Assembly (NCBI RefSeq): GCF_011769525.1
Contig: NZ_CP050440.1
Span: 1,055,501 to 1,119,500 of the forward strand
Direction: 5' to 3'
Length of the DNA stretch: 64,000 nt
Source: Tolypothrix sp. PCC 7910
Lineage (GTDB): Bacteria; Cyanobacteriota; Cyanobacteriia; Cyanobacteriales; Nostocaceae
Shown here: positions 5,304-26,223 of the stretch, piece after piece
Numbering within the stretch: the first letter of the stretch is position 1
Layout: every line of letters starts with the position of its first letter
Notes under the pieces: generated by a model
Databases searched by the model: none
The model's input: only the letters and a program-made list of their open reading frames with translations
Told to the model about the DNA's origin: nothing
Translations under genes and position numbers: made by a program

Positions 5304-5311
5304 ATTGATTC

Positions 5312-10148: not shown

Positions 10149-13100
10149 ATGAGTGCTAAACAGCTAGAGCAGGTAAAGCAATTACAAGCTACCCTTACCA
10201 AGATGGAAGTAACGCTAAATGCGATCGCTGATGCTGTAGTCTGGTTAGGGGAAGACCGATGTATTCAATGGTGCAATGCTCAGTTTCAGTGTTTGGTCAA
10301 CCAATTTGATGGTGCTGTCTGCGGTTTGCAGTTAACAGACTTATTACCTTTAGCACAAGCAGGACGAGCAGTTGCAGCACAATTATATCCAGATGCGCGG
10401 ATATTAAATGGAGAGTACGCCACCACAACTTATCAATTACTACAAAATGACCGTACCTTAATCTTAGAAATCTCTGGTAACTGTACGGTATTGCCTGATG
10501 AAAAATTTGCTGTATTGGTAGTTAGAGATATTACTAAGGCTCAACAAACTCAAGAATCACTGCAAGAAGCTGAGGAGCAATTACAAACATTAATTAATGC
10601 CACACCCGATATTATTTGTTTAAAAGATAGTGAGGGTAAATGGCTACTTTCTAACCAAGCTAACCTAGAATTTTTAGAACTGCGAGGCGTTAATTACCAA
10701 GGCAAAACTGACGCAGAATTAGCACGATTTAGTAATTTTTATTATGATACCTTAACCAATTGCTATCAAACAGATGAGCAAGCTTGGCAATTGGGATTTG
10801 TACATCGAGTAGAAGAAATTGTTCCGCGTCCTGATGGTACAGTCAGCAGTTTAGACATGATCAAAGTGCCTGTATTTCACCAGGATGGGAGACGCAAGGC
10901 GTTGGTAGTTTTAGGGCGTGATATGAGCGAACGCCAACAAACTCAGGCAGCTTTAGAAAATTCTCTATCTTTATTAAGCGCTATCTTAGAATCGATTCAA
11001 GATGGCATTTTAACAGTAAATAGTTTCGGAGATATCACTAGTTATAATCAAAAGTTCTTAGAAATGTGGTCAATTCCTCCAGAACTTTTGACAGAACCAA
11101 ATCATCCTACTAGATTGGCTTATTTAGCAAATCAACTCCTAGATCCAGAGGGATTTTTACAGCGAGTTAGAGAATTATATGCCCACCCAGAATTAGATAC
11201 ATACGATTTATTAGAATTGCGCGATGGCAGAGTATTTGAGCGATATTCTTGTCCGCAACGCATCAAAGAGCAAATTATTGGTAGAGTTTGGAGTTTTCGC
11301 GATGTCACCGAACGCCATAAGGCGGAAGTAGCACTGCGACAAAGCGAGCTGCAATACCGGAGTGTGTTTGAAGCGATTAATGATGGATTATTTATTACAG
11401 ATATAGAGACAGAAACAGTTGCCGAAGTTAACCCTGCAGCTTGCCAAATGCATGGTTATTCTTACGAAGAATTTATTACTCTGCATCCATCAGTCTACAT
11501 TCACCCAGGCTCGCATCCGGTGTTTCATGAGTTTATTGAAACAACAAAAGCCGGAGGGCAATTTTATGGACAAGCAGTTGATGTTTGCAAAGATGGCAGA
11601 TTAATTGATGTGGAAGTGAAAGGCACGACTTGCATTTACAATGGCAAGCGTCACGTTTTGGCAATTGTGCGCGATATTAGCGATGTCTACGACGAGCTTC
11701 GCTTACGCAAACGCACTGAGAAAGCTTTACGTCAAAGCGAAGTTCAGTATCGCGATTTGGTGCAAACAGCCAATTGTATTATTTTACGTTGGGATGCTAA
11801 CGGTAATGTCATCTATTTAAATGACTACGGTCAAAAACTGTTTGGCTTTGATTTAAACGAAATTACAGGACGCAATGTTGTCGGTACAATTGTGCCGGAA
11901 ACTGAAACCTCTGGGCGCGATTTACAGTGGTTAATGGTTGATATTTGCCAGCACCCAGAAAATTATCTCTTCAACGAAAATGAGAACTTATGCAAAAATG
12001 GCGATCGCGTCTGGATTGTTTGGGCAAATAAACCAATATTAGATGAGCAAGGAAATTTAATTGAGATTCTCTCAGTGGGAACCGATGCTACAGAACGCAA
12101 ACGCATCCAAGCTGCTTTGCAAGCAAGTGAGTTAAAATTCCGCACTATTGTAGAGAATGCAAATGACTTAATTTTTACCATCTCTCCCGAGGGAATTTTT
12201 ACTTACCACTCCCCAAATGTAACTCCCATTATGGGTTACAGCCTGCCGGAAATCGAGGGACATTCTGTAATTGAATTTACCTACCCAGAAGATTTAGCCA
12301 TTAGCGCTGTAGGTATACAAAAAGCCATAGCCGGAGAAAAGCAGACAGGTATTGAGGTGCGATTAAGACATAAAAACAATAGCTGGCGCTGGTTTAGTTT
12401 TAACACTTCCACTATTCACACTCCCAATGGTGAAATTGCGATCGCAGGTGTCGGGCGTGACATCACAGAACGTAAAGAATCGGAAGAAGCCTTGCGTCGC
12501 AGTGAATTGAAATACCGCAATATATTTGAAAATTCTCAAGTGGGGATTTTCCGCACCCGTCAACAAGATGGATTGATTGTGGATGCTAATCAACGCGGTG
12601 CGGATATCTTGGGTTTCGCCACTGCTAGTGATTTGATTGGCAGATATTTCACGACCGAATTGTATGTTAATGCAGACGATCGCACGCGGATGTTAGCTGA
12701 ATTAGCAGAGTACGGCGAAGTTCGCAATTTTGAAATCGCCTTACGCCGCCTTGATGGTTCTACTGTTTGGGTATTATTATCAGTGCGCCTCAACGCCGAA
12801 GAATCCTGTTTAGATTCCGTCTTTACCGATATTAGCGATCGCAAACAAGCAGAAGAGGCTTTGAGAGTTGCTAAAGAAGCAGCCGAAACTGCAAACCGTG
12901 CCAAAAGTGCTTTCTTAGCGAACATGAGTCATGAACTGCGTACCCCTCTCAATGCCATCTTAGGTTATTCGCAGTTGATGGAGCGAGATACTAGTCTCAA
13001 CTCAAAGCAACGTGAATCTTTAGCTACTATCAACCGTAGTGGAGAACATTTACTTAATTTGATTAATGACGTACTGGAAATGTCCAAAATTGAAGCTGGA

Positions 13101-14345
13101 CAAATGGTATTTCATCCAGAAGACTTTGATTTATATCTGTTGCTGCAAACACTGCAAGATATGTTCCAAGTACGGACACAAGCCAAGCGATTATTCCTCA
13201 AATTTGAAATCGCCGCCAATCTTCCCCGTTATATCCAAACAGATGAAGGCAAACTGCGCCAAGTTCTGATTAACCTTTTAGGTAACGCTGTTAAGTTTAC
13301 TCAAACAGGCGGGGTAACCTTGCGAGCGAAGTTGGGGGATGAGGAGGATGAAGGAGAATTAAAAAATACCCATTCCCCATTCCCCATTCCCCATTCCCCA
13401 TTCCCCCTAATCTTTGAAGTACAAGATACTGGACGGGGAATTGCACCAGAAGAAATACATAACCTGTTTCAGCCGTTTGTGCAGACATCCAGCGGTATTC
13501 AAACTAAGGAAGGTACAGGATTAGGGCTAACTATCAGCCGACAATTTGTCCGGTTAATGGGGGGCGATATTCACCTCAATAGTACTCTGGGGCAGGGATC
13601 TACTTTTAGCTTTGACATTCAAGTCACTTTAGCGGAACCATTAGCAGTTAAACCCCAGTTCCATAAAGGACGTGTACTCAAGCTAGATGCAAATCAACCA
13701 ACTTACCGTATTCTGGTAGTTGATGACCGTCAAGAAAACTGCAACTTAATTGTGCAGCTTCTTGGTAGTGTGGGTTTTGAAATTGTAGCGGCTCGTAATG
13801 GACAAGATGCGATCGCTCTTTGGGAAAGTTGGCAACCCCACCTAATTTTCATGGATATGCGAATGCCTATTATGAATGGTTACGACGCAACAAAAGAAAT
13901 TAGAGCCAGAGAAAAAAATACAAATACAAATCATCGCACAGTGATTATTGCTTTAACTGCTAGTGCTTTTGAAGAACAACAAGCAAGTATTTTAGCCGCA
14001 GGTTGCGACGACTTAGTCCGCAAACCATTCCGCGAACATATAATCTTTGAAAAGATAGCTGAATATTTGCAAGTGCGGTACATTTGCTCAGAAGATTGTA
14101 ACGAAAATGCTATAAATAACCAGCAAGAGAATGAGCAATCTACTATTTTGGATCTTCACTCTGCTATCAAGTTTATGCCTAATGAATGGATAGCAGAACT
14201 TCAGCAAGCAACCATTGCAGTTGATAGCGATCGCATTTTGCAATTAATTGAGCAAATCCCCCAAACTCATGCTGAATTGGCAGATAAATTAACAAATTTA
14301 GTCCGGAGTTTCGGCTTTGATGAGATTTTAGAATTGACCGAATAA
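10149..14345 (+). CDS. hybrid sensor histidine kinase with seven PAS domains and a C-terminal receiver
   Basis: 1398 residues with no clear membrane segment, so probably a cytoplasmic sensor. Seven PAS units follow each other (roughly 18-135, 143-255, 275-385, 402-510, 530-640, 655-770, 785-890), most introduced by a Q(Y/F)R or LxxIL helix. The HisKA motif NMSHELRTPLNAILG is near 925; the HATPase has LINLLGNAVKF, DTGRGI and GTGLGLTIS. A receiver (~1183-1310) has VVDDRQEN, phospho-acceptor FMDMRMP and a KPF lysine. The C-terminal ~70 residues are helical. Two repeat-derived in-frame insertions are visible: VYDELRL near residue 512 and THSPFPIPHSPFP near 1073-1086. The signal is unknown. It is the nearest large kinase left of the lipid cluster but carries no TTCTCCCC box. 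Confidence 0.93.
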   Translation: MSAKQLEQVKQLQATLTKMEVTLNAIADAVVWLGEDRCIQWCNAQFQCLVNQFDGAVCGLQLTDLLPLAQAGRAVAAQLYPDARILNGEYATTTYQLLQNDRTLILEISGNCTVLPDEKFAVLVVRDITKAQQTQESLQEAEEQLQTLINATPDIICLKDSEGKWLLSNQANLEFLELRGVNYQGKTDAELARFSNFYYDTLTNCYQTDEQAWQLGFVHRVEEIVPRPDGTVSSLDMIKVPVFHQDGRRKALVVLGRDMSERQQTQAALENSLSLLSAILESIQDGILTVNSFGDITSYNQKFLEMWSIPPELLTEPNHPTRLAYLANQLLDPEGFLQRVRELYAHPELDTYDLLELRDGRVFERYSCPQRIKEQIIGRVWSFRDVTERHKAEVALRQSELQYRSVFEAINDGLFITDIETETVAEVNPAACQMHGYSYEEFITLHPSVYIHPGSHPVFHEFIETTKAGGQFYGQAVDVCKDGRLIDVEVKGTTCIYNGKRHVLAIVRDISDVYDELRLRKRTEKALRQSEVQYRDLVQTANCIILRWDANGNVIYLNDYGQKLFGFDLNEITGRNVVGTIVPETETSGRDLQWLMVDICQHPENYLFNENENLCKNGDRVWIVWANKPILDEQGNLIEILSVGTDATERKRIQAALQASELKFRTIVENANDLIFTISPEGIFTYHSPNVTPIMGYSLPEIEGHSVIEFTYPEDLAISAVGIQKAIAGEKQTGIEVRLRHKNNSWRWFSFNTSTIHTPNGEIAIAGVGRDITERKESEEALRRSELKYRNIFENSQVGIFRTRQQDGLIVDANQRGADILGFATASDLIGRYFTTELYVNADDRTRMLAELAEYGEVRNFEIALRRLDGSTVWVLLSVRLNAEESCLDSVFTDISDRKQAEEALRVAKEAAETANRAKSAFLANMSHELRTPLNAILGYSQLMERDTSLNSKQRESLATINRSGEHLLNLINDVLEMSKIEAGQMVFHPEDFDLYLLLQTLQDMFQVRTQAKRLFLKFEIAANLPRYIQTDEGKLRQVLINLLGNAVKFTQTGGVTLRAKLGDEEDEGELKNTHSPFPIPHSPFPLIFEVQDTGRGIAPEEIHNLFQPFVQTSSGIQTKEGTGLGLTISRQFVRLMGGDIHLNSTLGQGSTFSFDIQVTLAEPLAVKPQFHKGRVLKLDANQPTYRILVVDDRQENCNLIVQLLGSVGFEIVAARNGQDAIALWESWQPHLIFMDMRMPIMNGYDATKEIRAREKNTNTNHRTVIIALTASAFEEQQASILAAGCDDLVRKPFREHIIFEKIAEYLQVRYICSEDCNENAINNQQENEQSTILDLHSAIKFMPNEWIAELQQATIAVDSDRILQLIEQIPQTHAELADKLTNLVRSFGFDEILELTE
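11684..11708. repeat. interspersed repeat inside the kinase gene
   Basis: GTCTACGACGAGCTTCGCTT and the next few bases resemble the CTACGAGAAGCTTCGCTAACGC class of Nostocales repeats. They add about seven residues between ISD and RKRTEKAL, where PAS linkers normally run straight through. Confidence 0.55.
13370..13404. repeat. short tandem repeat, five CATTCCC heptamers, in frame
   Basis: Five perfect CATTCCC heptamers lie inside the HATPase coding region. Thirty-five bases plus flanks keep the frame and encode a Ser/Pro/Phe/His-rich loop between the N box and the G boxes. Such heptamer arrays are common between cyanobacterial genes and rarer inside a catalytic domain. Confidence 0.85.
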
Positions 14346-15729: not shown

Positions 15730-16212
15730 TTACACTTTAGCTAAGGCAAGTTCTGCTGTAAACATTTTTTTGGTTTCTGGGTGAGTTGTAAATTTTAAGT
15801 ATTGAGTTGCCATTTCTGGTGTTAGCAGTTCAATCATGAGTCTGTTTTCTACCCAGAACTCAATCACATCAAAAAAGGTTTCACGGGTACAACGTAAAGT
15901 GCGCCAACCTTCGCGATCGCCAATTTTTTCAATTTCTTCTTGGCTAGCAGGTACAGAAATCGCTGCATGAATATCTACAAACTTAGGAGAAGTAGCAGTT
16001 TGGACAAATTCGCATTGTTGATCGCCTTCGCCTGGTTCTAATTGGGTACCTGAAGGATAAAGTTCGATGGCTGTACCATGTTCATCAAAAGGTATAACCA
16101 TATAGCTACCTGGATGAGGAGGGAAGGGAACAGCTTCCGCTTTTAAAATTTCTGCAAAAACTTGAGCAACGTGGTGAGGGTTGTTAACAGCAAATGAAAT
16201 ATGGTGAATCAT
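15730..16212 (-). CDS. VOC-superfamily (glyoxalase/dioxygenase-like) protein
   Basis: 160 residues beginning MIHHISFAV, the typical first strand of a vicinal-oxygen-chelate fold with a metal-ligand histidine. GTAIELYP around residue 50 has a candidate metal glutamate, and a second half (VDIHAAISV ... LMIELLTPE) matches the duplicated beta-alpha-beta-beta-beta unit. The substrate cannot be read from the sequence. The N-terminal half has a GSYMVIPFDEHG turn seen in uncharacterised cyanobacterial members. It has its own TTCTCCCC direct repeat 40 bp before the start and is the leftmost member of the proposed regulon. Confidence 0.8.
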   Translation of the reverse strand: MIHHISFAVNNPHHVAQVFAEILKAEAVPFPPHPGSYMVIPFDEHGTAIELYPSGTQLEPGEGDQQCEFVQTATSPKFVDIHAAISVPASQEEIEKIGDREGWRTLRCTRETFFDVIEFWVENRLMIELLTPEMATQYLKFTTHPETKKMFTAELALAKV

Positions 16213-16251: not shown

Positions 16252-16275
16252 ATCGGGGAGAACTAGGGGAGAAAA
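16252..16275 (-). promoter_or_regulatory. direct-repeat operator/promoter box 1 (before the VOC gene)
   Basis: Read on the minus strand: TTCTCCCC-TAG-TTCTCCCC-GATT, then six bases and TAATCTATAAAACATC (16225-16245), in which TATAAA is a good -10. The two half-sites start 11 bp apart, one helical turn, as in PhoB/RcaC-type boxes. It lies 40 bp from the start codon. Confidence 0.75.
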
Positions 16276-16292
16276 ATTTAACTTTGACAGAC

Positions 16293-16838
16293 TTACTGAG
16301 GTCGTCCATAATGAGCCTGACCTTGACCATCGGAAGTCTCAAGTAAAAGGACATCTTGTCCATACTCGTTTTTATCAATTGACCATTTGTAGGTTTCCGG
16401 CTTGGCTGTATTTTTTCCGGTATAGGTGCGTCCAGAATTGCAAATTTGTCCCTTGGATGAACTTTCTGTAGGTTGGAAGGTGAGTTGTTGATCGTTGACG
16501 CTAATTTTTCCTTTCTCTTCGATGAAGAGGTTAGACGCGCAGTTGTAGGTGCTGATTTGAATTAACCTGCTTCTTTGGTAGTTACCATTAGCTGCGACTA
16601 TAAAGCGATCGCTTGAACCATTGGGTGCTGCTGACTGTCCCGTAATTTGGTCTTGGTACTGGATAGAAGAAATTCGACCGTAAAGCCACTCGCCTTGAAG
16701 TTCAGCAGGTATCGCAGCGTCATTTTTACCAGCTTGACTAGCACTAGGATAGACGAACAGGCTAGTACTGAGGGTTAAACCCAAAGCCGCGAGAAGACGT
16801 GCAGTTTTTGGGATTGAAGATAATTTTTGGCTCGTCAT
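16293..16838 (-). CDS. secreted protein of unknown function
   Basis: Taking the ATG at 16838 gives 181 residues with a classic signal peptide: basic start (MTSQKLSSIPK), hydrophobic ALGLTLSTSLFVYPSAS, and likely cleavage at SQA-GK. The mature part has LQGEWLYGRISS, resembling small lipocalin-like or META-like beta barrels, and two Cys about 50 residues apart (YNCASN and GQICNSG) that could form a disulphide. A longer frame starts at 16967 but would bury the signal peptide and include the promoter box, so the inner start is preferred. An AAAGG precedes it at a suitable distance. Function not recognised. Confidence 0.75.
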   Translation of the reverse strand: MTSQKLSSIPKTARLLAALGLTLSTSLFVYPSASQAGKNDAAIPAELQGEWLYGRISSIQYQDQITGQSAAPNGSSDRFIVAANGNYQRSRLIQISTYNCASNLFIEEKGKISVNDQQLTFQPTESSSKGQICNSGRTYTGKNTAKPETYKWSIDKNEYGQDVLLLETSDGQGQAHYGRPQ

Positions 16839-16880
16839 ATAATTTTTACCTTTTGATTGTTGTTTTGAGAATAAAAAATA

Positions 16881-16904
16881 ATCGGGTAGAAGTAGGGGAG
16901 AAAA
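16881..16904 (-). promoter_or_regulatory. direct-repeat box 2 (before the secreted protein)
   Basis: Minus strand: TTCTCCCC-TAC-TTCTACCC-GATT, one mismatch in the second half-site, 43 bp from the chosen start codon. The downstream TAATCTATAAA element is weaker here (TTATTCTCAAAA). Confidence 0.65.
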
Positions 16905-16988
16905 GATTATTTTGTCTAAAAAAATTGCCAGCAGTTGTACTAACTGATGGCAAACGAAATTGAGCATTATTGAGTTTAAGGTTCAAAT

Positions 16989-17441
16989 TTAAGCAATAAA
17001 CCGCAGATTATACTTCTCTAAAATTGGCTGCACCTTTTCCATGTCTAGTGTCAAGCTATTTGCTACTTCACCCATTTCTTCATAAAAAGTTTTGGCGTTA
17101 CCAGGTGCAATAAAAACTAAAAATTTAGCAAAAGCTGAACGAATCTTGAAAGCGTGGGCAGTATCGGCAGAAATATTCACAAAATATCCTGGGGTTGCTG
17201 CTACGGTTTGTTTACCAACTTGTAATTCTACCTCACCTTCTAGAATGTAGAATGCTTCTTCCCAAGGATGAGTATGTAAAGGCGGGCCGTTGTTTTCTGT
17301 GTCTGTAAATTCGTAAATTGTCCAAGCTCCATTAGTCGTTTCACCAGTTGCTTTGGTGGTAAAATGTCCGCCTATAACAGAGAATTTGTTACCTTCTCCT
17401 GGTGCTATAACTGTTGGTTTATGCATGAGTAAATTTGACAT
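16989..17441 (-). CDS. cupin-domain protein
   Basis: 150 residues with a single conserved cupin barrel. [20 protein letters not shown] (residues ~52-71) contains the His-X-His and Glu ligands of motif 1, and DTAHAFKI provides the motif 2 histidine. The arrangement resembles quercetin-dioxygenase-like and storage-type small cupins; the substrate is unknown. A good ribosome site (TAGGAG) precedes the ATG. It is in the same direction as the secreted and VOC genes, but each of the three has its own box, so they are separate transcription units of one regulon. Confidence 0.85.
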
Positions 17442-17494
17442 ATTAGCTACTCCTAGCTCTTTAAATAATTTGATATTTTTTAGATTAGAAATGA

Positions 17495-17518
17495 ATCGGG
17501 GAGAACTAGGGGAGAAAA
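17495..17518 (-). promoter_or_regulatory. direct-repeat box 3 (before the cupin)
   Basis: Minus strand: TTCTCCCC-TAG-TTCTCCCC-GATT, then six bases and TAATCTAAAAAATATC, exactly the spacing of boxes 1 and 6. It is 54 bp from the cupin start, inside the gap shared with the divergent kinase gene. Confidence 0.75.
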
Positions 17519-17625
17519 TTAAGCTATGAAGAAGTTTTCTGTAAAAGATTATTAAGCTATTGAATTGACGATAAAATTTCTATTCATAATTAAGAGCCTG
17601 ATTCTGGCTCAGAGTTAATATTGCG

Positions 17626-19155
17626 ATGCCCACCCAGCTATTCAATTCTCCAAAAGCAGACATACTAGTAATTGATGATACACCGGAAAACCTGAATCTT
17701 TTATCTGCCATGCTCACCGAACAGGGGTATAAAGTTCGCAGCGTGACTAAAGGTTCTACAGGTTTGCGGGGAGCGAATGCAGTTCCCCCCGACTTGATTT
17801 TGCTGGATGTTAATATGCCGGAGATGAATGGTTATGAGGTTTGTCAACAATTAAAGACAAGCGATCGCACTCGTGACATTCCAGTAATTTTTATCAGTGC
17901 TTTGGGTGATGTACTGGATAAGGTGAAGGCGTTTGCAGTTGGCGGGGTGGATTACATCACCAAGCCTTTTCAACTAGAAGAAGTGTTAGCCAGAATTGAA
18001 AACCATTTAACGATTCGCAACCTGCAAAAGCAACTCCAAGCGCAAAATCAGCAATTACAGCAGGAAATACGCGATCGCACTAAGGCTGAGGAGAAGTTTG
18101 CCAAAGTCTTTCGTTCTAGTCCCAACCCAATTGCGATCGCCACAATTTCAGAAGCGCGGTTTCTCGATGTTAATCCCAGCTTCCTGAAGATGAGTGGCTA
18201 CAGTGTAGATGAGGTAATTGGGCATACCGTCACGGAAATTGATTTAGGCAAAAATACAGTAGCAATCAGCCTAACAATTCAACGTTTACCGGAAAGTGGT
18301 TCGCTGTACAATCTGGAATTTGAATTCTCTACCAAATCTGCGGAACTCAAGACAATCTTACTATCCATCGAATTAATCGACTTGGCGGGAGTACCCTGTG
18401 CTTTATTAATTGCCAATGACATCACCGAACGCAAACGCCTAGAAAATGAGTTTATCTCTTTAGTTAGTCATGAGTTGCGGACACCTTTAACTTCCACTAT
18501 GGGAGCATTAGATTTGTTGGGTTCAGGACAATTGGGAACTTTAACTGCACAGGGGCAAAAAGTTTTGAGCATTGCTACCAATAACACCGAACGTCTCATC
18601 CGGTTAGTGAACGATATTCTCGATTTAGAACGGATGAAATCGGGCAAAATCTTCATGCGTAAAGCCAAGTGTAATGCTGCTGAACTGCTGATTACAGCCA
18701 CAGAAGCTATGCAAGCAATGGCGGATAAACTTCAAGTTAAACTAATTGTTAATCCTGTAGCGGTGGAACTTTGGGCAGATGCGGATCGCCTATTGCAAAC
18801 CTTCACCAACCTACTCAGCAACGCTATTAAGTTTTCTGAACCTGGGGATACAGTATGGATTGGTGCCACACTTTCAGAAAATCAAAGTATTGAGCCTCAA
18901 GCCGATGCACCTAGTTATCTTTTGATTACATTCCAAGATGAAGGACGAGGAATCCCGGAAGATAAATTACAAATCATCTTTGAACGTTTTCAACAGGTTG
19001 ATGCTTCCGACTCCCGCAACAAAGGCGGAACAGGTTTAGGACTAGCTATTTGTCGGAATATTGTGCAGCAACATAACGGTAAAATTTGGGTTCAGAGCGC
19101 TTTAGGGGAAGGTAGCACCTTTTACGTACTTTTACCTTTAGCTGACTCTAATTAG
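17626..19155 (+). CDS. receiver-PAS-histidine kinase
   Basis: 509 residues, soluble. An N-terminal receiver (~12-130) has VIDDTPEN, the phospho-acceptor motif ILLDVNMPEMNG and a TKPF lysine. A coiled linker (QLQAQNQQLQQEIRDRT) leads to a PAS domain (~160-275). HisKA (VSHELRTPLTS, His near 283) and a complete HATPase (LLSNAIKF, DEGRGIP, GGTGLGLAIC) follow. Receiver-first kinases of this kind usually act within a relay. It sits beside a lone receiver and in the middle of the TTCTCCCC-box genes, so it is a good candidate to phosphorylate a regulator of that set; this is inferred from position only. Confidence 0.93.
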   Translation: MPTQLFNSPKADILVIDDTPENLNLLSAMLTEQGYKVRSVTKGSTGLRGANAVPPDLILLDVNMPEMNGYEVCQQLKTSDRTRDIPVIFISALGDVLDKVKAFAVGGVDYITKPFQLEEVLARIENHLTIRNLQKQLQAQNQQLQQEIRDRTKAEEKFAKVFRSSPNPIAIATISEARFLDVNPSFLKMSGYSVDEVIGHTVTEIDLGKNTVAISLTIQRLPESGSLYNLEFEFSTKSAELKTILLSIELIDLAGVPCALLIANDITERKRLENEFISLVSHELRTPLTSTMGALDLLGSGQLGTLTAQGQKVLSIATNNTERLIRLVNDILDLERMKSGKIFMRKAKCNAAELLITATEAMQAMADKLQVKLIVNPVAVELWADADRLLQTFTNLLSNAIKFSEPGDTVWIGATLSENQSIEPQADAPSYLLITFQDEGRGIPEDKLQIIFERFQQVDASDSRNKGGTGLGLAICRNIVQQHNGKIWVQSALGEGSTFYVLLPLADSN

Positions 19156-19173
19156 CATCTGCTTACTGCTCTA

Positions 19174-19195
19174 ATCTCCCCCATTTCTCCCCGAT
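19174..19195 (+). promoter_or_regulatory. direct-repeat box 4 (before the lone receiver)
   Basis: ATCTCCCC-CAT-TTCTCCCC-GATT on the coding strand, 67 bp before the start of the response regulator. One mismatch at the first base of the left half-site. It overlaps the region just after the kinase stop codon. Confidence 0.65.
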
Positions 19196-19261
19196 TGCAT
19201 TTTAGAATAGCTCTATAGTTATCAAGCTAGTCAGCATCACATATCATGCAAGGATGGCACC

Positions 19262-19654
19262 ATGAGCAGAAATATCTTGATTGTTGATGACGAAGAAGAC
19301 GTACAGGCGATCGCAAAATTGGGTTTAGAATTGGGTGCTGGTTGGAATGTGTTGACAGCTTGTTGTGGACAGGAAGCATTGAGTATTGCTGCTCAATCAC
19401 CAGTTGATGTCATCCTTTTAGATATGATGATGCCGGATATGGATGGACGTACCACTCTACAAAAATTAAAGGCTAATCCTGCTACTAAGGAAATTCCGGT
19501 TATTTTACTAACTGCCAAAGTTCAAGAGTCAGATCAAGATTGCTTTACTGGGTTATATGTCGCTGCTATCTTTGCCAAGCCTTTCCGTCCTTTAAAATTA
19601 GCAGGGCAAATCAGTGAAGCATTAGGCTGGGCTTATAGCGAAATAGATAGTTAA
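19262..19654 (+). CDS. single-domain response regulator
   Basis: 130 residues made of one receiver: acidic pocket IVDDEEDV, phospho-acceptor VILLDMMMPDMDG, the Thr in LLTAK and the KPF lysine. No output domain, so it works as a phosphate shuttle or partner-binding switch. It lies about 105 bp after the receiver-PAS-kinase and has its own direct-repeat box, which suggests that it is part of the feedback circuit of the cluster. An AAGGATGGCACC leader gives a plausible ribosome site. Confidence 0.92.
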   Translation: MSRNILIVDDEEDVQAIAKLGLELGAGWNVLTACCGQEALSIAAQSPVDVILLDMMMPDMDGRTTLQKLKANPATKEIPVILLTAKVQESDQDCFTGLYVAAIFAKPFRPLKLAGQISEALGWAYSEIDS

Positions 19655-19685
19655 ATAGGTCGGCGAAATCAAAGATAATTGGCTG

Positions 19686-19795
19686 AGGCTGTCATTCTTA
19701 CAAAGTTCTGATGCCTGCGGCAACCCCTTCGGTGTACGGAGGCAACCTCCGCTCAGACTTTGCGCTTTGTTCTTGGTCATTTGTCATTGGTAAGG
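19686..19795. repeat. interspersed repeat block
   Basis: GGCTGTCATTCTTACAAAG, a variable GC-rich palindromic core, CTCCGCTCAGACTTTGCGC and TTGTCATTGGTAAGGATTTC. The same order recurs at 39383-39560, with a different core, and its right end alone recurs at 41567-41640. Confidence 0.75.
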
Positions 19796-19861
19796 ATTTC
19801 AAGAAACAGTAATGAAGAACAGTAGGATGCGTTAATAACGCATCCCCCAAGGCTTTTGGTG

Positions 19862-19990
19862 CTAGAAGATAATACCAATTCAAATAATGTTTGCAACAGA
19901 TAAAATCTTTGTAGGGGCACGGCATCCACAATCTTTTGGCATATCAAATATATTACAGGTGCCGTGCCCCTACCCATCTGTCGCTCATCT
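19862..19990. repeat. REPIN-containing MITE-like element
   Basis: Two REP halves in inverted orientation (GGGGCACGGCATCC ... GGTGCCGTGCCCC) around TTTTGGCATATCAAATAT, flanked by ATACCAATTC and CATCTGTCGC. The reverse complement matches 29284-29365 almost throughout, including the loop, so both derive from one mobile REP dimer. Confidence 0.75.
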
Positions 19991-20009
19991 GATTCTCATC
20001 TAATTCTCA

Positions 20010-20032
20010 TTTCTCCCCTACTTCTCCCCGAT
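20010..20032 (+). promoter_or_regulatory. direct-repeat box 5 (before the COQ4-FAAL genes)
   Basis: TTCTCCCC-TAC-TTCTCCCC-GAT, perfect in both half-sites, 46 bp before the GTG start of the COQ4-like gene. AATTTAAAAAACAT follows where the other boxes have TAATCTATAAA. Confidence 0.7.
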
Positions 20033-20077
20033 CGCTCTGTAATTTAAAAAACATAAGCAGCATGGGAGATAAATCAA

Positions 20078-20818
20078 GTGCAAATTATACAAAATCTTAA
20101 AAAAGAGCTAAAAAAGCTGATATTCGCCTATCGCTTCATGCGAATCGTCCAGCTACCTTACGGTTCCTTTGGCGCAGGTGGCAATTTATCTGATGCAGCC
20201 ATTGATCCTAAAAGTCTCAATCAAATTGTCCAGTTTCTCTCGCGCACGGAAAGGGGAAGAATAGCCCTAGCTGAAAAAAAGTCCCTCGGTAAGATTGATT
20301 TACAGCAACTTCATCAATTACCTAGCAACACCTTGGGCTATATTTACGCCGATCATCTGCTGAGAAACGGCTTAACTCCGCCACCAGTACGGGAACATAC
20401 TTCAGATACCTATAGATATTTGTTCAATTATGTGATGGAAACTCATGACATCTGGCACGTAGTTACTGGTAGCAATACAGACAAAGCTGGCGAAATTCAA
20501 GTAGAGACATTTTCTTTAACTCAGTTCTATCCAGCGCGGTTTTGGGTGGTGTTATTGGCGAAAAATTTCCTCAAAACTGCAATTGAAGATATGGATTTGT
20601 GCAGTCAGCACATGGAGGCTTTTGTGCGTGGCTGGATTATCGGACAACAAGCACAACCTTTGTTTGGTGTTCCTTGGAATACTTTATGGGAAAAGCCTTT
20701 AGACGAAATCCGCGCTGAATTAAATATTCGTCCTTATTTAGGTTCAGAACTAGAAGCTGCTATTCAGTGGCGCGGTGAGGAAATTACTGCTAAATCTGAA
20801 TTGGTAGGAGTCAAATGA
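20078..20818 (+). CDS. COQ4-like protein
   Basis: 246 residues, GTG start with GGGAGAT eight bases upstream. ETHDIWHVVTG then an acidic residue gives HDxxH-X11-E (His-Asp-Ile-Trp-His, with Glu twelve residues on), the zinc motif of COQ4, which supports ubiquinone-head-group processing in other organisms. Cyanobacteria do not make ubiquinone, so the role here must differ; lipid or quinone-like substrate binding is a reasonable inference. The stop codon overlaps the start of the FAAL gene (ATGA), so the two are translationally coupled. First gene of the acyl-lipid operon. Confidence 0.85.
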   Translation: MQIIQNLKKELKKLIFAYRFMRIVQLPYGSFGAGGNLSDAAIDPKSLNQIVQFLSRTERGRIALAEKKSLGKIDLQQLHQLPSNTLGYIYADHLLRNGLTPPPVREHTSDTYRYLFNYVMETHDIWHVVTGSNTDKAGEIQVETFSLTQFYPARFWVVLLAKNFLKTAIEDMDLCSQHMEAFVRGWIIGQQAQPLFGVPWNTLWEKPLDEIRAELNIRPYLGSELEAAIQWRGEEITAKSELVGVK

Positions 20819-22581
20819 GACATACACCAATGGATGCGAGTGTGACTACTTTGGTGGATCTGTTGGAGTATCGAGCCACTGATCAGCCACAGCAAACAGC
20901 TTATACTTTCCTCGCAGATGGAATTACCGCCGATAGCAGTTTTACATATAGGGAATTGCATCAAAAAGCCCAGGCGATCGCAGCATATTTGCAAAGCCAA
21001 AAAGCTTACCAAGAGCGAGTTCTATTACTTTATCCACCAGGATTAGATTTTGCGGCGGCTTTCTTTGGTTGTTTGTATGCAGGTGCAGTGGCGGTTCCCG
21101 CTTATCCTCCGCGCCCGAATCAATCTATTTCACGACTCCAAGCGATCGCAGCGAATGCTCAAGCTAAGATTGCACTCACCACTCAAGCAGTTTTAGCCCT
21201 GGTGCAGCCACAGTTACAAGAGTTTACCGATTTGCGATCGCTACAATGGCAATCTACCGATAATCTCAATCAAAACTGGGCGCAGGATTGGCGACGAGTG
21301 GAAGTTAGTAGCGATACCCTCGCCTTCTTACAGTACACTTCCGGCTCCACTTCCACACCAAAAGGTGTGATGATTAGCCACGCTAATTTACTGCACAATT
21401 CTTCTTTAATTTATCAATCATTTCAGCATTCTCCAGAGAGTCGGGGTGTAATTTGGCTACCTGCTTACCATGACATGGGCTTGATTGGCGGTATCTTACA
21501 ACCGCTTTACGGTGGTTTCCCTGTCTTTTTGATGTCGCCAATGATATTCTTACAAAAGCCTTTTTACTGGTTGCAAGCGATTTCACGTTATCAAGCAACT
21601 ACCAGTGGCGGCCCTAACTTTGCTTATGATTTATGTGTGCGTAAAATTACCCCAGAACAACGCGCCACTCTCGACTTGAGCAGTTGGGAAGTGGCTTTTA
21701 ATGGTGCGGAACCCGTACGCGCAGAAACAATGGAGCAGTTTGCTACTCTATTTGCACCTTGTGGCTTCCGTCGCGAAGCGTTTTATCCCTGCTATGGTAT
21801 GGCAGAAACTACGTTAATCATTGCTGGCGGAGATAAAGCTGCTTTACCAACTGTGAAAACGGTAGAGGAAAATGCTTTAAAACAGCATCAAATAATTCCT
21901 AGCGATAATCATCTTAATAGCCAAAATATTGTTAGTTGTGGGCAAAGTTTAGCAAATCTGCAAGTTGTTATTGTTAATCCAGAAACCTTAACTCCATGTT
22001 CACCCAATGAAGTCGGGGAAATTTGGGTGTCTGGCGCTAGTGTGGCGCAAGGATATTGGCATAATCCCCAAGCAACAAAAGAATATTTTCAAGCATACTT
22101 AGCAGATAGCCAACAAGGGCCATTTTTACGCACAGGAGATTTAGGCTTTTTACATCAAGGCGAACTCTTCGTTACAGGCCGACTCAAAGATTTAATCATT
22201 ATTCGGGGACGCAATTATTACCCCCAGGATATCGAATTAACGGTTGCTCAAGCTCACCCATCCCTACGACTTGGCGCTGGTGCGGCTTTTACCATTGAGC
22301 GCGAAAATGGAGTACGGCTAGTAATTGTGCAAGAAGTTGAGCGCCAATACCTACGCCACCTCAACGTTGCAGAAGTAGTAGGAAAGATTCGGGAAGCGGT
22401 TTTACAACAACATGAATTACAGATTCATACTGTAGCGTTGATTAAAACAGCCACTCTCCCGAAAACTTCTAGCGGTAAAGTCCAGCGCTATGCTTGCCGA
22501 GAGCAGTTTTTAGCTCAAAAATTAGAGATTTTGCCAAATTTAGCGCAGATTGCAAGTATCAATCATCCTTTATCTGCATAA
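20815..22581 (+). CDS. fatty acyl-AMP ligase (FAAL)
   Basis: 588 residues of the ANL superfamily. FAAL hallmarks are FFGCLYAGAVAVPAYPPRP, LQYTSGSTSTPKGVMISH, WLPAYHDMGLIGGILQPLY and SGGPNFAYDLCVRKI, with the family-specific insertion after TGDLGFL. A C-terminal lysine lies in KTSSGKVQRYACR. FAALs activate a free fatty acid as the adenylate and pass it to a carrier protein, not to CoA. The carrier gene at 24982 and desaturases in between make a FAAL-desaturase-ACP set like the JamABC type used to make unsaturated acyl-ACP. An alternative start lies five codons downstream (MDASV). Confidence 0.93.
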   Translation: MRHTPMDASVTTLVDLLEYRATDQPQQTAYTFLADGITADSSFTYRELHQKAQAIAAYLQSQKAYQERVLLLYPPGLDFAAAFFGCLYAGAVAVPAYPPRPNQSISRLQAIAANAQAKIALTTQAVLALVQPQLQEFTDLRSLQWQSTDNLNQNWAQDWRRVEVSSDTLAFLQYTSGSTSTPKGVMISHANLLHNSSLIYQSFQHSPESRGVIWLPAYHDMGLIGGILQPLYGGFPVFLMSPMIFLQKPFYWLQAISRYQATTSGGPNFAYDLCVRKITPEQRATLDLSSWEVAFNGAEPVRAETMEQFATLFAPCGFRREAFYPCYGMAETTLIIAGGDKAALPTVKTVEENALKQHQIIPSDNHLNSQNIVSCGQSLANLQVVIVNPETLTPCSPNEVGEIWVSGASVAQGYWHNPQATKEYFQAYLADSQQGPFLRTGDLGFLHQGELFVTGRLKDLIIIRGRNYYPQDIELTVAQAHPSLRLGAGAAFTIERENGVRLVIVQEVERQYLRHLNVAEVVGKIREAVLQQHELQIHTVALIKTATLPKTSSGKVQRYACREQFLAQKLEILPNLAQIASINHPLSA

Positions 22582-22583
22582 TC

Positions 22584-22711
22584 TCCGTAGGGTGTGTTGT
22601 CGCGTAGCGCAACGCACCGACGCATCTGGAATCTTTTATGGTGCGTTAGCCTGCAGCATAACACAAATCGATTTACATTTAAATCCTGTAGAGACGCGAT
22701 TCATCGCGTCT
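22584..22711. repeat. interspersed repeats before the first desaturase
   Basis: GTAGGGTGTGTTGTCGCGTA...AACGCACC with a partner GGTGCGTTAG (22584-22650), then palindrome GAGACGCGATTCATCGCGTC (22691-22711). These separate the FAAL stop from the desaturase start. The bases just after, ACTCCACGATTTATCCCT, faintly resemble the right half of the TTCTCCCC box. Confidence 0.6.
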
Positions 22712-22752
22712 TTACTCCACGATTTATCCCTGGATTAGTATCAGTTGAGAAT

Positions 22753-23700
22753 ATGGAAAGCAGTATTAGCGTTGAATCCGCGTTATTGAAAAAGAGAACC
22801 ATGAGCAACAGCTACATTAAGTTGTTGCAAAAGCGGCATTTTTTATTGTGTGACGTTCTGCCTTTTGTTGGGTTTATTGTAGCGATCGCCTGTTTATGGG
22901 GCAAGCCTATTAGTGTAGTTAATATCACCATTTTTCTGGGGATGTGGTTTCTCACATCTGTCGGAATTACCGTTGGCTATCACCGCTACTTCACTCACCG
23001 CGCTTTTCAAGCACATCCAATTATCCGGATTCTGCTAGTAATTCTCGGTTCTACTGGTGCGGAAGGCCCCGTACTTTCTTGGGTAGCCAACCACAGACAC
23101 CACCATCGCTATAGCGACGAAATTGGAGACACTCATTCTCCGCATTTACACGGTACAGGCTGGAGAAATCAACTTTACGGATTTTGGCACGCTCATCTGT
23201 GGTGGAAAGTTGAGTATGATTATCCCAACCCACTTTACTATGCACCGGAACTGCTGCGAGACAAAACAATTTACAAGCTTAATCAACTGTATTTTGTTTG
23301 GGTAATTTTGGGGCTAGTTTTCCCAGCGATTGTCGCTTTTAGCCTTACAGGTAATTGGATTGGTGCTTGGCATGGTTTTTTGTGGGGTGGAGTCATTCGT
23401 CTATATTTAGGACAGCACACCACTTGGTGCATTAACTCTATCTGTCATCTTTTCGGTACTCGGAGTTTTGATACCAAAGATAAAAGCACAAATAATCTAT
23501 GGCTAGCTTTACCTACCTTTGGCGAATCTTGGCACAACAATCATCACGCTTTTCAAAACTCAGCTAAGTTTGGCTTGCAATGGTGGCAGATTGATATTGG
23601 CTATTGGGTAATTGTGGCGTTGCAATATCTAGGTTTAGCGTGGGATGTGAATCAACCTACACCAGAAATGATGCAATCAAAAAAAGTGCGATCGCTATAA
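22753..23700 (+). CDS. membrane fatty-acid desaturase (delta-9/DesC type)
   Basis: About 315 residues from the ATG at 22753. The three histidine boxes of acyl desaturases are present: HRYFTH (TVGYHRYFTHRAF), HRHHH (ANHRHHHRYSD) and HNNHH (GESWHNNHHAF). Four hydrophobic stretches give the usual two membrane hairpins, and the di-iron site faces the cytoplasm. A longer frame reaches 22594 but its first 53 codons are translated interspersed repeat, so that start is rejected; ATG 22801 is another option. In context the substrate is probably the ACP-bound chain made by the FAAL, or a lipid-bound one. Confidence 0.9.
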   Translation: MESSISVESALLKKRTMSNSYIKLLQKRHFLLCDVLPFVGFIVAIACLWGKPISVVNITIFLGMWFLTSVGITVGYHRYFTHRAFQAHPIIRILLVILGSTGAEGPVLSWVANHRHHHRYSDEIGDTHSPHLHGTGWRNQLYGFWHAHLWWKVEYDYPNPLYYAPELLRDKTIYKLNQLYFVWVILGLVFPAIVAFSLTGNWIGAWHGFLWGGVIRLYLGQHTTWCINSICHLFGTRSFDTKDKSTNNLWLALPTFGESWHNNHHAFQNSAKFGLQWWQIDIGYWVIVALQYLGLAWDVNQPTPEMMQSKKVRSL

Positions 23701-23720
23701 ATAATTAGTGTAATTCAAGC

Positions 23721-24770
23721 ATGAATCTATATAAACCTGTGGAGCAGAATTTAATTATGAATAGCACCGCGCAAAAACAGCAAATACATACAGATCAATA
23801 CTATATTCAAACCATCCGTCCTTTTATCCCAAAAGAAGCTTTTCAAAAAAAGCCAAGTTCTCTCTGGTATTTTCTCATTCAGTTTTCGGTATTTATATCA
23901 GCAATTGCCTTAACACGCTACTCCAATAATATTTGGATATTTTTGCTTGCCAGTTTATTATCAGGAAATTGCTTGCCAGGTCTAGTTTTTTTTGCTCATG
24001 ATTTGAGTCATGGCTCAGTTATGGCAAAATCTTGGCAGAGACATTTTCTAGAAGTGTTAATTTGGGCAATAAATTTTATCCCCTTAACAATGTGGATACA
24101 TATTCATCATCGAACGCATCATCCTAATGCAGCAACATTTAAAGACCCTGATCGGCGATGGTTAACCTCAGAAAAAACTCTCATTAAGTGGATTTACACT
24201 TGGATATTCTATCCCCAAAAAAACAAATTCATACTTAGATTCATTAATCCTTTCGCCTATATTCACTTTGTCTTTTACATCTTGCGTAATTTCATAGCTG
24301 TTTTTATCTCACCAAAAAGCAAGCTTTATATAGTTCCTTATCAAGTACCATATACTCTCAAAGAAAAATGCTCAATTCTTATTGAAACAGGTATTATCAT
24401 TTTAATTCAGGCTATAATTTTTGCAGCCGTTCAATGTAACTGGTTAAAGTACCTATTTGTCAGCATATTACCTATATTAATTGCTTCAGTGATCGAAGTC
24501 ATTTATGTAGCGACGAATCATTTCCTCAATCCTATAAAAGCGCAAAATAATTCTGTGCAAGGTACTACATCTGTAATAGTACCTCCCTTGTTCAATGTAA
24601 TTCATAACAATTTCTCTTATCACACCGAACATCATCTATTTCCAACAATGCACCCTTCTTACTATCCATTAGTCAGCGATTTGCTGAAAAGGCACTTCCC
24701 ACAAGACTATAACCAATTAACAATTACAGAAGCTTGGCGGCGTTTATGGAATTCTCAGGCTTTTGATTAA
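23721..24770 (+). CDS. second membrane fatty-acid desaturase/hydroxylase
   Basis: 349 residues, 20 bp after the first desaturase. Histidine boxes HDLSH, HHRTHH and HTEHH mark a FADS-superfamily enzyme of a different subfamily from its neighbour (delta-12/omega-3/beta-carotene-ketolase-like lineage). Hydrophobic helices lie near 50-100 and 210-255. An ATG 12 codons inside (MNSTAQKQQ) is an alternative start. Two desaturases in one FAAL cluster suggest a polyunsaturated or acetylenic chain. The 24804-24853 hairpin ends this transcript. Confidence 0.9.
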   Translation: MNLYKPVEQNLIMNSTAQKQQIHTDQYYIQTIRPFIPKEAFQKKPSSLWYFLIQFSVFISAIALTRYSNNIWIFLLASLLSGNCLPGLVFFAHDLSHGSVMAKSWQRHFLEVLIWAINFIPLTMWIHIHHRTHHPNAATFKDPDRRWLTSEKTLIKWIYTWIFYPQKNKFILRFINPFAYIHFVFYILRNFIAVFISPKSKLYIVPYQVPYTLKEKCSILIETGIIILIQAIIFAAVQCNWLKYLFVSILPILIASVIEVIYVATNHFLNPIKAQNNSVQGTTSVIVPPLFNVIHNNFSYHTEHHLFPTMHPSYYPLVSDLLKRHFPQDYNQLTITEAWRRLWNSQAFD

Positions 24771-24803
24771 GGATGTCATAGCAGTTTGCAAAAATAAGGT
24801 GAT

Positions 24804-24853
24804 AAAAATATGGGGTAGAGGCGCGTATCTGTGCGTTCCTACCCCATATTTTT
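24804..24853. terminator. strong bidirectional hairpin after the second desaturase
   Basis: AAAAATATGGGGTAG (24804-24818) pairs perfectly with CTACCCCATATTTTT (24839-24853). The flanking A and T runs fit a Rho-independent terminator in both directions. The loop carries GCGC/TGCG, and the core GGGGTAG...CTACCCC also looks REP-like. Confidence 0.7.
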
Positions 24854-24900
24854 GTGTTGTAACCATTATTTGAATTGATATAAAGTTTATGCCTGGTATC

Positions 24901-24940
24901 TTCTCCCCTACTTCTCCCCGATTTATCCCTAATCTATAAA
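24901..24940 (+). promoter_or_regulatory. direct-repeat box 6 and -10 (before the acyl carrier protein)
   Basis: TTCTCCCC-TAC-TTCTCCCC-GATT (24901-24923), six bases, then TAATCTATAAAGTATC with TATAAA at 24935-24940. Spacing from half-sites to -10 is the same as in boxes 1 and 3. There is no separate TTGACA, so the right half-site occupies the -35 position, as at PhoB-activated promoters. It is 60 bp before the start codon. Confidence 0.75.
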
Positions 24941-24981: not shown

Positions 24982-25293
24982 ATGGAAGTCACTAGCACTA
25001 TCACCAATAATTCATTAGAATCGCAACAAAATACTCTGAGTGCAGAGGTAATTCAAGAATCGATAGTTGCTTACATTGCCGAACTTTTAGAAGTTGAGCC
25101 ACAACAGGTAAATGTCAAGGCTTCTTTTACTCAATATGGTTTAGATTCACTATCTGTAGTTAGTTTGATTTCCCATTTAGAAAGTTTAACCGGACAGGAT
25201 TTATCACCCACTTTATTATATGACTTGCCTAGCATCGAAGTTTTATCCCAGCGTTTAGCATCAGGCACAACAAAACTTGAGGTTGCTCTCTAA
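24982..25293 (+). CDS. acyl carrier protein
   Basis: 103 residues. The phosphopantetheine attachment serine is in YGLDSLSVVSL (near residue 57). The sequence before it (ESIVAYIAELLEVEPQQVNVKASF) and after it (LPSIEVLSQRLAS) are the usual helices. A discrete carrier beside a FAAL is the expected acceptor of the activated acyl chain. The N-terminal ~20 residues are Ser/Thr/Asn-rich and probably disordered. The methyltransferase follows after 45 bp with no promoter seen between. Confidence 0.93.
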   Translation: MEVTSTITNNSLESQQNTLSAEVIQESIVAYIAELLEVEPQQVNVKASFTQYGLDSLSVVSLISHLESLTGQDLSPTLLYDLPSIEVLSQRLASGTTKLEVAL

Positions 25294-25338: not shown

Positions 25339-26223
25339 ATGACTACTCTAAATACTGCCACTCCTGGAGCTTCACATCAAGCGATTCAACATCATTACGA
25401 TGTTGGCAATGATTTTTATCAACTTTGGCTAGATAGCACTATGACTTATTCTTGTGCTATTTGGGAAGAAGGGGAAACAGAGTCAGTGCTAGAATTAGCT
25501 CAAATTAGAAAAGTAAATTTTCATATCAATCAAGCTAAAGCTAAAAATGCTAAGCGGGTTTTAGATATAGGTTGTGGTTGGGGTACAGTACTGCAACGTT
25601 TAGTAGATGTACATGGAGTTGAGCAAGCTGTAGGTTTGACATTAAGTGAAGCGCAAAAAGATTGGATTGCTGCTAAGAAGCATCCGCAAATAGAAGTTAA
25701 TCTCGAAAGCTGGTTAAACTACTCACCCACAGAACCTTTTGATGCCATTATTTCTATTGGCGCTTTTGAGCATTTTGTGAAGCCGGAATTGTCGAGTAAT
25801 GAGAAAATTGATGTTTATCGTACTTTCTTTAATCGCTGTCATGAATGGTTAAAGCCTGGGGGTTCGATGTCGATTCAAACCATCGCCTATGGTAAAAGAA
25901 AACCAGAAGAAGTACAAAAAAGTTTAGGCGCTCAGTTTGCCAATCAAGAAATATTTCCCGAATCTGATTCACCGCGACTGACAGAAATTACCGCCGCCGC
26001 AGAAGGAATTTTTGAAGTAATTTCAGTTCGCAACGATCGCATGGATTATGTCCGTACTCTTCAAGCGTGGTTAACTAACTTTAGAAGCAAGCGTACAGAA
26101 GTGATAAATTTGGTTGGTAAAACTGTATTTGAGCGCTACGAACGTTATCTATATCTGGCACTTTTAGGCTTTTTGACTGGCGATTTATTACTTTTACGGT
26201 TAACTTTTCGCCGGATTGATTAA
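25339..26223 (+). CDS. SAM-dependent methyltransferase, cyclopropane-fatty-acid-synthase-like
   Basis: 294 residues. IQHHYDVGNDFYQLWLDSTMT is the N-terminal signature of the CFA/mycolic-acid methyltransferase family (quoted in part: HHYDVGNDFYQLWL). The SAM site is VLDIGCGWGTVLQRL, followed by GLTLSEAQ and an ISIGAFEHF stretch with the Glu-His pair typical of the family. It lacks the longer N-terminal domain of bacterial Cfa, like mycolic acid methyltransferases. In context it probably methylates or cyclopropanates a double bond introduced by the desaturases; substrate unproven. Confidence 0.88.
   Translation: MTTLNTATPGASHQAIQHHYDVGNDFYQLWLDSTMTYSCAIWEEGETESVLELAQIRKVNFHINQAKAKNAKRVLDIGCGWGTVLQRLVDVHGVEQAVGLTLSEAQKDWIAAKKHPQIEVNLESWLNYSPTEPFDAIISIGAFEHFVKPELSSNEKIDVYRTFFNRCHEWLKPGGSMSIQTIAYGKRKPEEVQKSLGAQFANQEIFPESDSPRLTEITAAAEGIFEVISVRNDRMDYVRTLQAWLTNFRSKRTEVINLVGKTVFERYERYLYLALLGFLTGDLLLLRLTFRRID

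What the first reader, a model, noticed from the sequence alone, without database searches (positions are those of the whole stretch)
16252..24940. A six-site regulon: TTCTCCCC-N3-TTCTCCCC boxes before six transcription units of the acyl-lipid cluster
The direct repeat occurs at 16252-16275, 16881-16904, 17495-17518 (minus strand) and 19174-19195, 20010-20032, 24901-24922 (plus strand). In every case it points the same way as the gene it precedes and ends 40-67 bp before its start codon. Half-sites start 11 bp apart. In boxes 1, 3 and 6 the spacing to TAATCTA(T/A)AAA is identical. I saw no copy elsewhere in the 64 kb. This fits an OmpR/PhoB-class activator replacing the -35 element. It ties a VOC protein, a secreted protein, a cupin, a lone receiver, COQ4-FAAL and ACP-methyltransferase genes into one circuit.
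Basis: partly seen in the sequence, partly recalled or inferred. Interest (0 to 1): 0.88.

Follow-up and report, generated by a model that had tools for sequence, protein, structure and literature searches.

The report
Six-promoter switch for secreted-metabolite genes
Six promoters in this cyanobacterial gene cluster share one activator-binding site laid out like the classic phosphate-control box, and comparison of many genomes points to one nearby signalling protein as its likely reader, a switch that related species use for peptide-antibiotic-like genes as well.

Summary
In 8.76 Mb, 21 sites lie within two mismatches of the repeat; only our six carry a -10 element (TAN3T) 10 bp downstream, 0 of the other 15 do. 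The layout (8-bp repeats, 3-bp linker, 10 bp to -10, no -35) is that of a Pho box and holds in 53 of 56 non-redundant promoters from 27 genomes. The best candidate reader is the window's own response regulator, 29676-31961 (REC-wHTH-Hpt-REC-REC-degenerate GGDEF), probably fed by kinase 17626-19155 and lone receiver 19262-19654. Key evidence: 25 genomes with a Ser192 regulator have TTCTCCCC boxes, 18 with Ala192 have TTCTTCCC in both half-sites. Residue 192 aligns with PhoB Val197, which contacts bases. This is one evolutionary event, no binding was measured, and 6 of 15 further box genomes had no close regulator. The acyl-lipid genes are this group's cargo (5 of 32 genomes read); elsewhere box-led genes include RiPP leader peptides and RiPP exporters. 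Signal and product are unknown. Nine literature searches showed no description; only open-licence papers are held.

The parts
16252..16273 (-). Box 1, before VOC-like gene 15730-16212; -10 TAATCT first base 16244, predicted start of transcription about 16232
16881..16902 (-). Box 2, before secreted-protein gene (start 16838); -10 TATTCT first base 16873
17495..17516 (-). Box 3, before cupin gene 16989-17441; -10 TAATCT first base 17487
19174..19195 (+). Box 4, before lone receiver gene 19262; -10 TAGAAT first base 19203; a box precedes this gene in 17 genomes
20011..20032 (+). Box 5, before COQ4-FAAL (GTG start 20078); -10 TAATTT first base 20040
24901..24922 (+). Box 6, before ACP-methyltransferase genes (start 24982); -10 TAATCT first base 24930
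29676..31961 (+). Proposed reader of the box: response regulator REC-wHTH-Hpt-REC-REC-degenerate GGDEF; Ser192 in the recognition helix
17626..19155 (+). Histidine kinase REC-PAS-HisKA-HATPase, probable kinase of the relay; orthologues in 32 of 145 family genomes, each of which has a box of one type or the other
19262..19654 (+). Lone receiver, probable phosphate shuttle and itself a box target; found in 31 of 34 neighbourhoods chosen by the kinase
10149..14345 (+). Second, multi-PAS hybrid kinase (PAS repeats-HisKA-HATPase-REC), possible further input; found in 22 of 34 neighbourhoods
15730..16212 (-).
16293..16838 (-). Target: 181-aa protein, secreted by its look (signal-like N-terminus, by eye), no Pfam or NCBIfam match
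16989..17441 (-). Target: cupin
20078..20818 (+). Target: COQ4-like protein
20815..22581 (+). Target: fatty acyl-AMP ligase, overlaps the COQ4 gene
24982..25293 (+). Target: acyl carrier protein
25339..26223 (+). Target: cyclopropane-synthase-like methyltransferase, likely co-transcribed with the ACP gene

Best explanation
The six repeats are binding sites of one OmpR/PhoB-class activator. Two molecules bind head to tail on the two half-sites at about -41 to -23, over the place of the missing -35 element, and bring RNA polymerase to a -10 element 10 bp further on. The activator is most likely the window's own response regulator at 29676-31961. Inferred chain: kinase 17626-19155 (perhaps also hybrid kinase 10149-14345) passes phosphate by way of lone receiver 19262-19654 and/or the Hpt domain to the first receiver of the regulator, which then binds and switches on all six units together. 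One unit is the lone receiver itself, a feedback loop. Shown by sequence: site, geometry, genome-wide specificity, conservation, co-occurrence and coupled change of site and recognition helix. Inferred: phosphotransfer route, direct binding, activation rather than repression, signal and product.
For: Genome scan: 6 of 21 near-matches have the -10 at the fixed offset, all six ours. TAN3T at one offset in 53 of 56 non-redundant promoters, 0-4 at each other offset tried; 113 of 115 sites in a second count. Geometry equals the E. coli Pho box as given in PMC1906773 (passage). All 32 kinase-positive genomes of 145 have a box: 18 box A, G201 its core, 13 of Ala type with box B (12, G355). No other DNA-binding family recognised among those conserved in at least 6 of 34 neighbourhoods. 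Coupled change: 85 sites of 20 Ser192 genomes are 72 CC, 0 TT at half-site position 5, with CC in every genome; 30 sites of 14 Ala192 genomes are 30 TT. Whole-genome scans of 145: box A in 18 of 19 Ser, 0 of 14 Ala, 13 of 112 others; box B in 13 of 14 Ala, 2 of 19 Ser (one half-site only), 9 of 112 others. Prediction written first for 7 distant genomes: 4 had a close regulator and 4 fit; of 8 more with known boxes 5 had one and 5 fit. Residue 192 aligns with PhoB Val197. In 4 Ala-type genomes a box (1-2 mismatches) lies directly before the regulator gene (G229, G311, G330, G355).
Against: No binding, transcript or mutant data. The Ser-to-Ala change is one event on one branch (99/97), so it cannot separate this regulator from another protein that changed at the same time. 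Three further columns of the DNA-binding domain (137, 149, 173) also separate the 20 Ser from the 14 Ala proteins, so 192 alone is not proven. 6 of the 15 genomes (G271, G260, G251, G479, G389, G499) have a box but no close regulator was found. In some searches and 9 of the 112 genomes counted as without the regulator have a box, mostly single imperfect hits; two of them (G302, G338) proved to have the regulator. Many Ser-type loci were fetched because they held box A, which biases the 72 CC count (the whole-genome scan does not share this bias). 8 of 85 Ser-type sites have A or G, and 5 have T, in one half-site. In the window no box precedes the regulator gene itself. G346 and G324 have box and regulator but no kinase at the limit.
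Confidence: 0.83

Rival explanations
1. The box is read by another OmpR-family regulator (or one unlinked to the cluster), and the linked REC-wHTH-Hpt protein only travels along.
For: These genomes hold many receiver proteins (28-320 first-look candidates per listed genome); the coupled change is a single event; 6 of 15 genomes have a box but no close regulator.
Against: No other DNA-binding family recognised among the conserved neighbours of the kinase (small or weakly conserved genes would be missed); the switch is at the base-reading position itself; box directly before this regulator's gene in 4 genomes; all 9 further genomes that have the regulator fit.
Confidence: 0.12
2. The motif is the extended promoter of an alternative sigma factor, not an activator site.
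For: Fixed spacing to a -10-like element; no ordinary -35.
Against: Two like half-sites one helical turn apart; when the motif changes, the same base changes in both half-sites (30 of 30 Ala-type sites; 13 of 13 class-wide matches concordant although the pattern allowed mixtures, 5 of them ours), as expected of two copies of one protein; the -10 is the ordinary TAN3T; no sigma gene recognised among conserved neighbours.
Confidence: 0.03
3. Interspersed or chance repeat without function.
For: The half-site is simple, and some genomes carry tandem arrays with similar cores.
Against: Six sites in 8.8 Mb, all before genes in the same direction, kept in orthologous promoters down to the -10.
Confidence: 0.01
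4. Same protein and sites, but a repressor that blocks RNA polymerase by sitting on the -35 region (overlaps with the best explanation as to the reader).
For: The site overlaps the -35 region.
Against: No -35 hexamer is present to be blocked, and the spacing equals that of activated Pho promoters.
Confidence: 0.07

Closest known systems
PhoB / Pho box (E. coli); SphR in cyanobacteria
   Same: 8-bp direct repeats, 3-bp linker, 10 bp to TAN3T (PMC1906773 passage); wHTH alignable to PhoB without gaps; same base-reading position
   Different: Half-site TTCTCCCC, not CTGTACTA or CTTAACCT; regulator has extra Hpt, two more receivers and a degenerate GGDEF; targets seen are not phosphate genes
RcaE-RcaF-RcaC (chromatic acclimation, L box)
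   Same: Kinase, lone receiver and DNA-binding regulator in a relay (PMC8256508 passages); RcaC's REC-wHTH-Hpt-REC layout and direct-repeat L box are recalled, from no call
   Different: No bilin photoreceptor domain found in the two window kinases; different box; different targets
RfpA-RfpC-RfpB (far-red acclimation)
   Same: Kinase, small receiver as likely phosphate shuttle, DNA-binding regulator with two CheY domains (PMC6424891 passages)
   Different: Phytochrome input and photosystem targets there; no RfpB box in the passages I saw
NHLM/Nif11/LanM RiPP clusters
   Same: Single box-led genes in relatives match TIGR03794, TIGR03796, TIGR03898 and TIGR03793 above their cut-offs; a LanM follows one box-led leader gene
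   Different: Not among the box targets of the window's genome

Membership tests
PhoB-class activator promoter | Two 8-bp direct repeats with 3-bp linker | tested here: met
PhoB-class activator promoter | Repeat ends 10 bp before a -10 TAN3T | tested here: met
   6 of 6 in window; 53 of 56 non-redundant; geometry from PMC1906773 (passage)
PhoB-class activator promoter | No -35 element; activator takes its place | tested here: met
   best TTGACA match 1-3 of 6 at spacings 16-19 in all 56; that the activator takes its place is inferred
PhoB-class activator promoter | Reader is REC + Trans_reg_C protein that binds when phosphorylated | tested here: inconclusive
   domains and invariant Asp51 found; binding not testable here
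RcaEFC / RfpABC-type relay | Linked kinase + lone receiver + multi-receiver DNA-binding regulator | tested here: met
   window; regulator within 12 kb of the kinase in 16 of 34 fetched neighbourhoods, some of them cut short; in the window it lies just outside that span
RcaEFC / RfpABC-type relay | Phytochrome or cyanobacteriochrome photosensor in the kinase | tested here: not met
   Pfam finds REC, PAS-type, HisKA and HATPase domains in the two window kinases, plus two weak matches that are not photosensors; homologues not scanned
RcaEFC chromatic acclimation | L-box target sequence (recalled) | tested here: not met
   box is TTCTCCCC-N3-TTCTCCCC
Cyanobacterial Pho (SphR) regulon | CTTAACCT repeats before phosphate genes | tested here: not met
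   consensus from PMC1906773 (passage)
Active diguanylate cyclase | GG(D/E)EF motif in the regulator's last domain | tested here: not met
   reads GNGEF in the window protein; the third position is Gly in 33 of 34, one gap

The most novel reading that the evidence does not exclude
A portable control circuit for secreted specialised metabolites in cyanobacteria: kinase, lone receiver and PhoB-geometry activator stay together while the genes under the box are exchanged (acyl lipid here, lanthipeptide-type peptides and their exporters, FAAL-led polyketide-like or RTX proteins elsewhere). Its specificity was recoded once in evolution, by Ser192 to Ala in the recognition helix together with C to T at the same place of both half-sites in every target promoter, so that the two versions are now insulated from each other.
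Probability: 0.5. Interest if true: 0.82.

Novelty: new variant of a known kind. Interest (0 to 1): 0.7.

Why it matters
It proposes a reader and a promoter code for orphan lipid and peptide gene clusters of Nostoc-type cyanobacteria, so box searches can predict co-regulated silent clusters and a single gene might turn them on. It also offers a natural record of how a one-residue, one-base change may rewire a whole regulon, testable by reciprocal swaps in a reporter strain.

Tried and rejected
Erythromycin as signal: PMC6424891 (section 10 part 1 and section 13 read; passages) reports up to 15,000-fold rises, largest for a crystallin gene and also large for a bacteriocin-processing peptidase gene, in rfp mutants of Chlorogloeopsis fritschii PCC 9212 grown with erythromycin. 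In G295, a genome of that genus, the only PF00030 (crystallin) match, next to a C39-peptidase-like sequence (by eye), has no box in the 19 kb around it (best PWM score 4.7, boxes score above 24), so I dropped the link. I did not show that it is the same locus.

Light acclimation (RcaC or RfpB itself): no photosensor domain in the window's kinases, other box. Phosphate: other box and targets. Plasmid collection: the listed matches fall on the neighbouring katG and an oxidoreductase gene (20 of 44 records listed). Structure models of the secreted and VOC-like proteins could not be made.

Literature: nine searches. TTCTCCCC with cyanobacteri (10 papers, listing seen) and TCTCCCCTAG (22 papers, 10 listed) showed no paper on such a box. 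Only open-licence PMC papers are held, so absence is weak.

Rows dropped or moved: the G368 regulator fragment has no DNA-binding domain and was left out. G283 and G314 were first labelled paralogues (42-50% identity) and were moved to the Ala type because the tree puts them inside that clade. Six true paralogues (45-48%) were kept as an outside group. One search used 96 of 111 boxes (score at least 30, enough flank), thinned to 56. The 61 named loci were used for their titles and contig lengths only.

Full report
Check. The six repeats are real, correctly placed and oriented. Shuffles of the window give 0.30 matches on average where 7 are found. The window lies in an 8,761,534-base genome in 7 contigs; within one mismatch that genome has seven sites, our six and one inside a 133-aa frame. 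Of 21 sites within two mismatches, six have TAN3T at the fixed offset: exactly the six of the finding.

Anatomy. From 56 non-redundant promoters of 27 genomes the unit is (A/T)TCTCCCCTA(G/C)TTCTCCCCGATT, six more bases, then TAN3T. TAN3T sits at one offset in 53 of 56, at each other offset tried in 0 to 4. If the last T of the -10 is at -7, the half-sites lie at about -41 to -34 and -30 to -23, over the absent -35. PMC1906773 (passage) gives the E. coli Pho box as 8-bp direct repeats with a 3-bp linker, 10 bp upstream of TAN3T/A: the same geometry.

Comparison. Stretches were taken first from 54 regions chosen by box matches or, in five cases, by COQ4 matches, then from 40 regions chosen mostly by kinase and regulator matches. 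The box precedes the lone receiver gene in 17 genomes, the cupin in 12, VOC in 11, the secreted protein in 7 (two of them distant relatives, 32% and 43%), COQ4 in 5 and ACP in 5. The acyl-lipid genes were seen in five of the 32 genomes read (G000, G334, G244, G366, G021). Elsewhere box-led genes are small leader-like peptides (a group of 7 genomes; in G271 the likeness rests on an upstream extension only; the two scanned score 27.9 and 32.1 bits for Nif11, just under the 32.3 cut-off), NHLM secretion proteins (6 genomes; one scanned, TIGR03794 above cut-off), an NHLM ABC exporter (G346, TIGR03796), a mersacidin-type lantibiotic (G346, TIGR03898), an NHLP leader peptide (G273, TIGR03793), and in G242 a GH44 glycosidase and an RTX protein. 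In G295 a leader-like gene is followed by a LanM and, behind two more boxes, a HlyD-type gene; two further boxes lie roughly 0.4-0.7 kb upstream of genes, one set with a FAAL followed by ketosynthase-like sequence (by eye), the other with nitric-oxide synthase and a desaturase. By matching contig lengths G295 is Chlorogloeopsis fritschii PCC 6912 and G347 Nostoc carneum NIES-2107.

Regulator. Among protein families (at least 90 aa, over 40% identity) within 12 kb of the kinase in 34 genomes, those in at least 6 genomes are the kinase (34, by selection), the lone receiver (31), the multi-PAS hybrid kinase (22), the regulator (16; the window's own lies just outside the span), VOC (12), cupin (11), the secreted protein (8) and three frames that by their coordinates lie antisense to kinase or receiver genes. 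The regulator is the only DNA-binding one recognised. All 32 kinase-positive genomes of the 145 scanned have a box of one type or the other. Of the 31 genomes with box A, 18 have the kinase and 18 the Ser-type regulator. The regulator's Asp51, His293 and Asp537 are invariant in 34 of 34; its second receiver has no Asp in any of the 34, and the GGDEF motif is degenerate.

Coupled change. Regulators fall into Ser192 and Ala192 types. In Ala genomes no box A stood before the receiver gene, but four of them showed a variant with T for C in both half-sites (G303, G094, G269, G320). A scan of the same 145 genomes for this variant found it in 13 of 14 Ala genomes and in 2 of 19 Ser genomes, there in one half-site only; the fourteenth, G355, has it at two mismatches before its regulator gene. 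Box A is in 18 of 19 Ser genomes by the longer pattern (the nineteenth, G201, has the core) and in 0 of 14 Ala genomes. On sites in hand: Ser 72 CC, 0 TT of 85, CC in 20 of 20 genomes; Ala 30 TT of 30, in 14 of 14 genomes. A class-wide scan of 291 genomes for the composite promoter, mixtures allowed, found 13 sites in 9 genomes, all concordant: 7 CC (5 of them the window's own) and 6 TT. I then wrote down the prediction for the 7 genomes new in that scan. Four of the 7 had a close regulator and all four fit (Ser in G402; Ala in G483, G541, G516); G479, G389 and G499 had none. Of 8 more genomes chosen for known boxes, five had one and fit (Ser in G021, G242, G231, G302; Ala in G338); G271, G260 and G251 had none (identity over the first 240 residues 67-80%). 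Together that is 25 Ser genomes and 18 Ala genomes without an exception, and 6 box genomes without a regulator found. The Ala type is one clade (99/97) inside the Ser type, so this is one event kept since, not many. Columns 137, 149 and 173 of the domain also separate the first 34 regulators; only 192 lies in the recognition helix, at the place of PhoB Val197 (ungapped alignment; the numbering follows from Thr194, Val197 and Arg201 of the paper fitting TVDVHIRR). Val197 is reported to touch thymines in both half-sites (PMC3973317 passage). Loss of a hydroxyl where C becomes T, with its methyl, is chemically reasonable; this is inference.

Mechanism and limits. The parts match a phosphorelay like RcaE-RcaF-RcaC or RfpA-RfpC-RfpB, but without a photosensor domain in the kinases here, so I do not file it under either. 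Feedback differs: the box leads the lone receiver in 17 genomes of Ser type and the regulator itself in G229, G311, G330 and G355 of Ala type. Direct binding, activation, signal and end product are untested. The desaturase, lipocalin, hydrolase and monooxygenase genes between and after the boxed units may belong to the boxed operons; this was not tested.

Noticed in passing
window 2028-9487: Two NRPS modules (C-A-T and C-A-T-TE) beside the multi-PAS hybrid kinase; no box within 3 mismatches near them.
   Followed up: no
window 59036-60946: PatG-like S8 protease with PatG_C domain; such proteases mature cyanobactins (recalled).
   Followed up: no
window 29676-31961: Regulator carries a degenerate GGDEF (GNGEF) and a receiver without its Asp, both conserved as such across orthologues.
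   Followed up: partly
G143, G052, G071, G220: Tandem arrays, mostly with a 138-bp period, carry TTCTCCCC-like cores; by their layout they are not promoters.
   Followed up: no
L064-L068 (G201): In G201 the box ends in CTTT instead of CGAT at all 5 sites read, perhaps a third dialect.
   Followed up: no
L060 (G281), L061 (G245): Three half-sites in a row at 11-bp steps without the -10 at the fixed place.
   Followed up: no
window 22594-23700: The desaturase frame's first start gives a long N-terminal extension over repeat-like DNA; the true start is probably further in.
   Followed up: no
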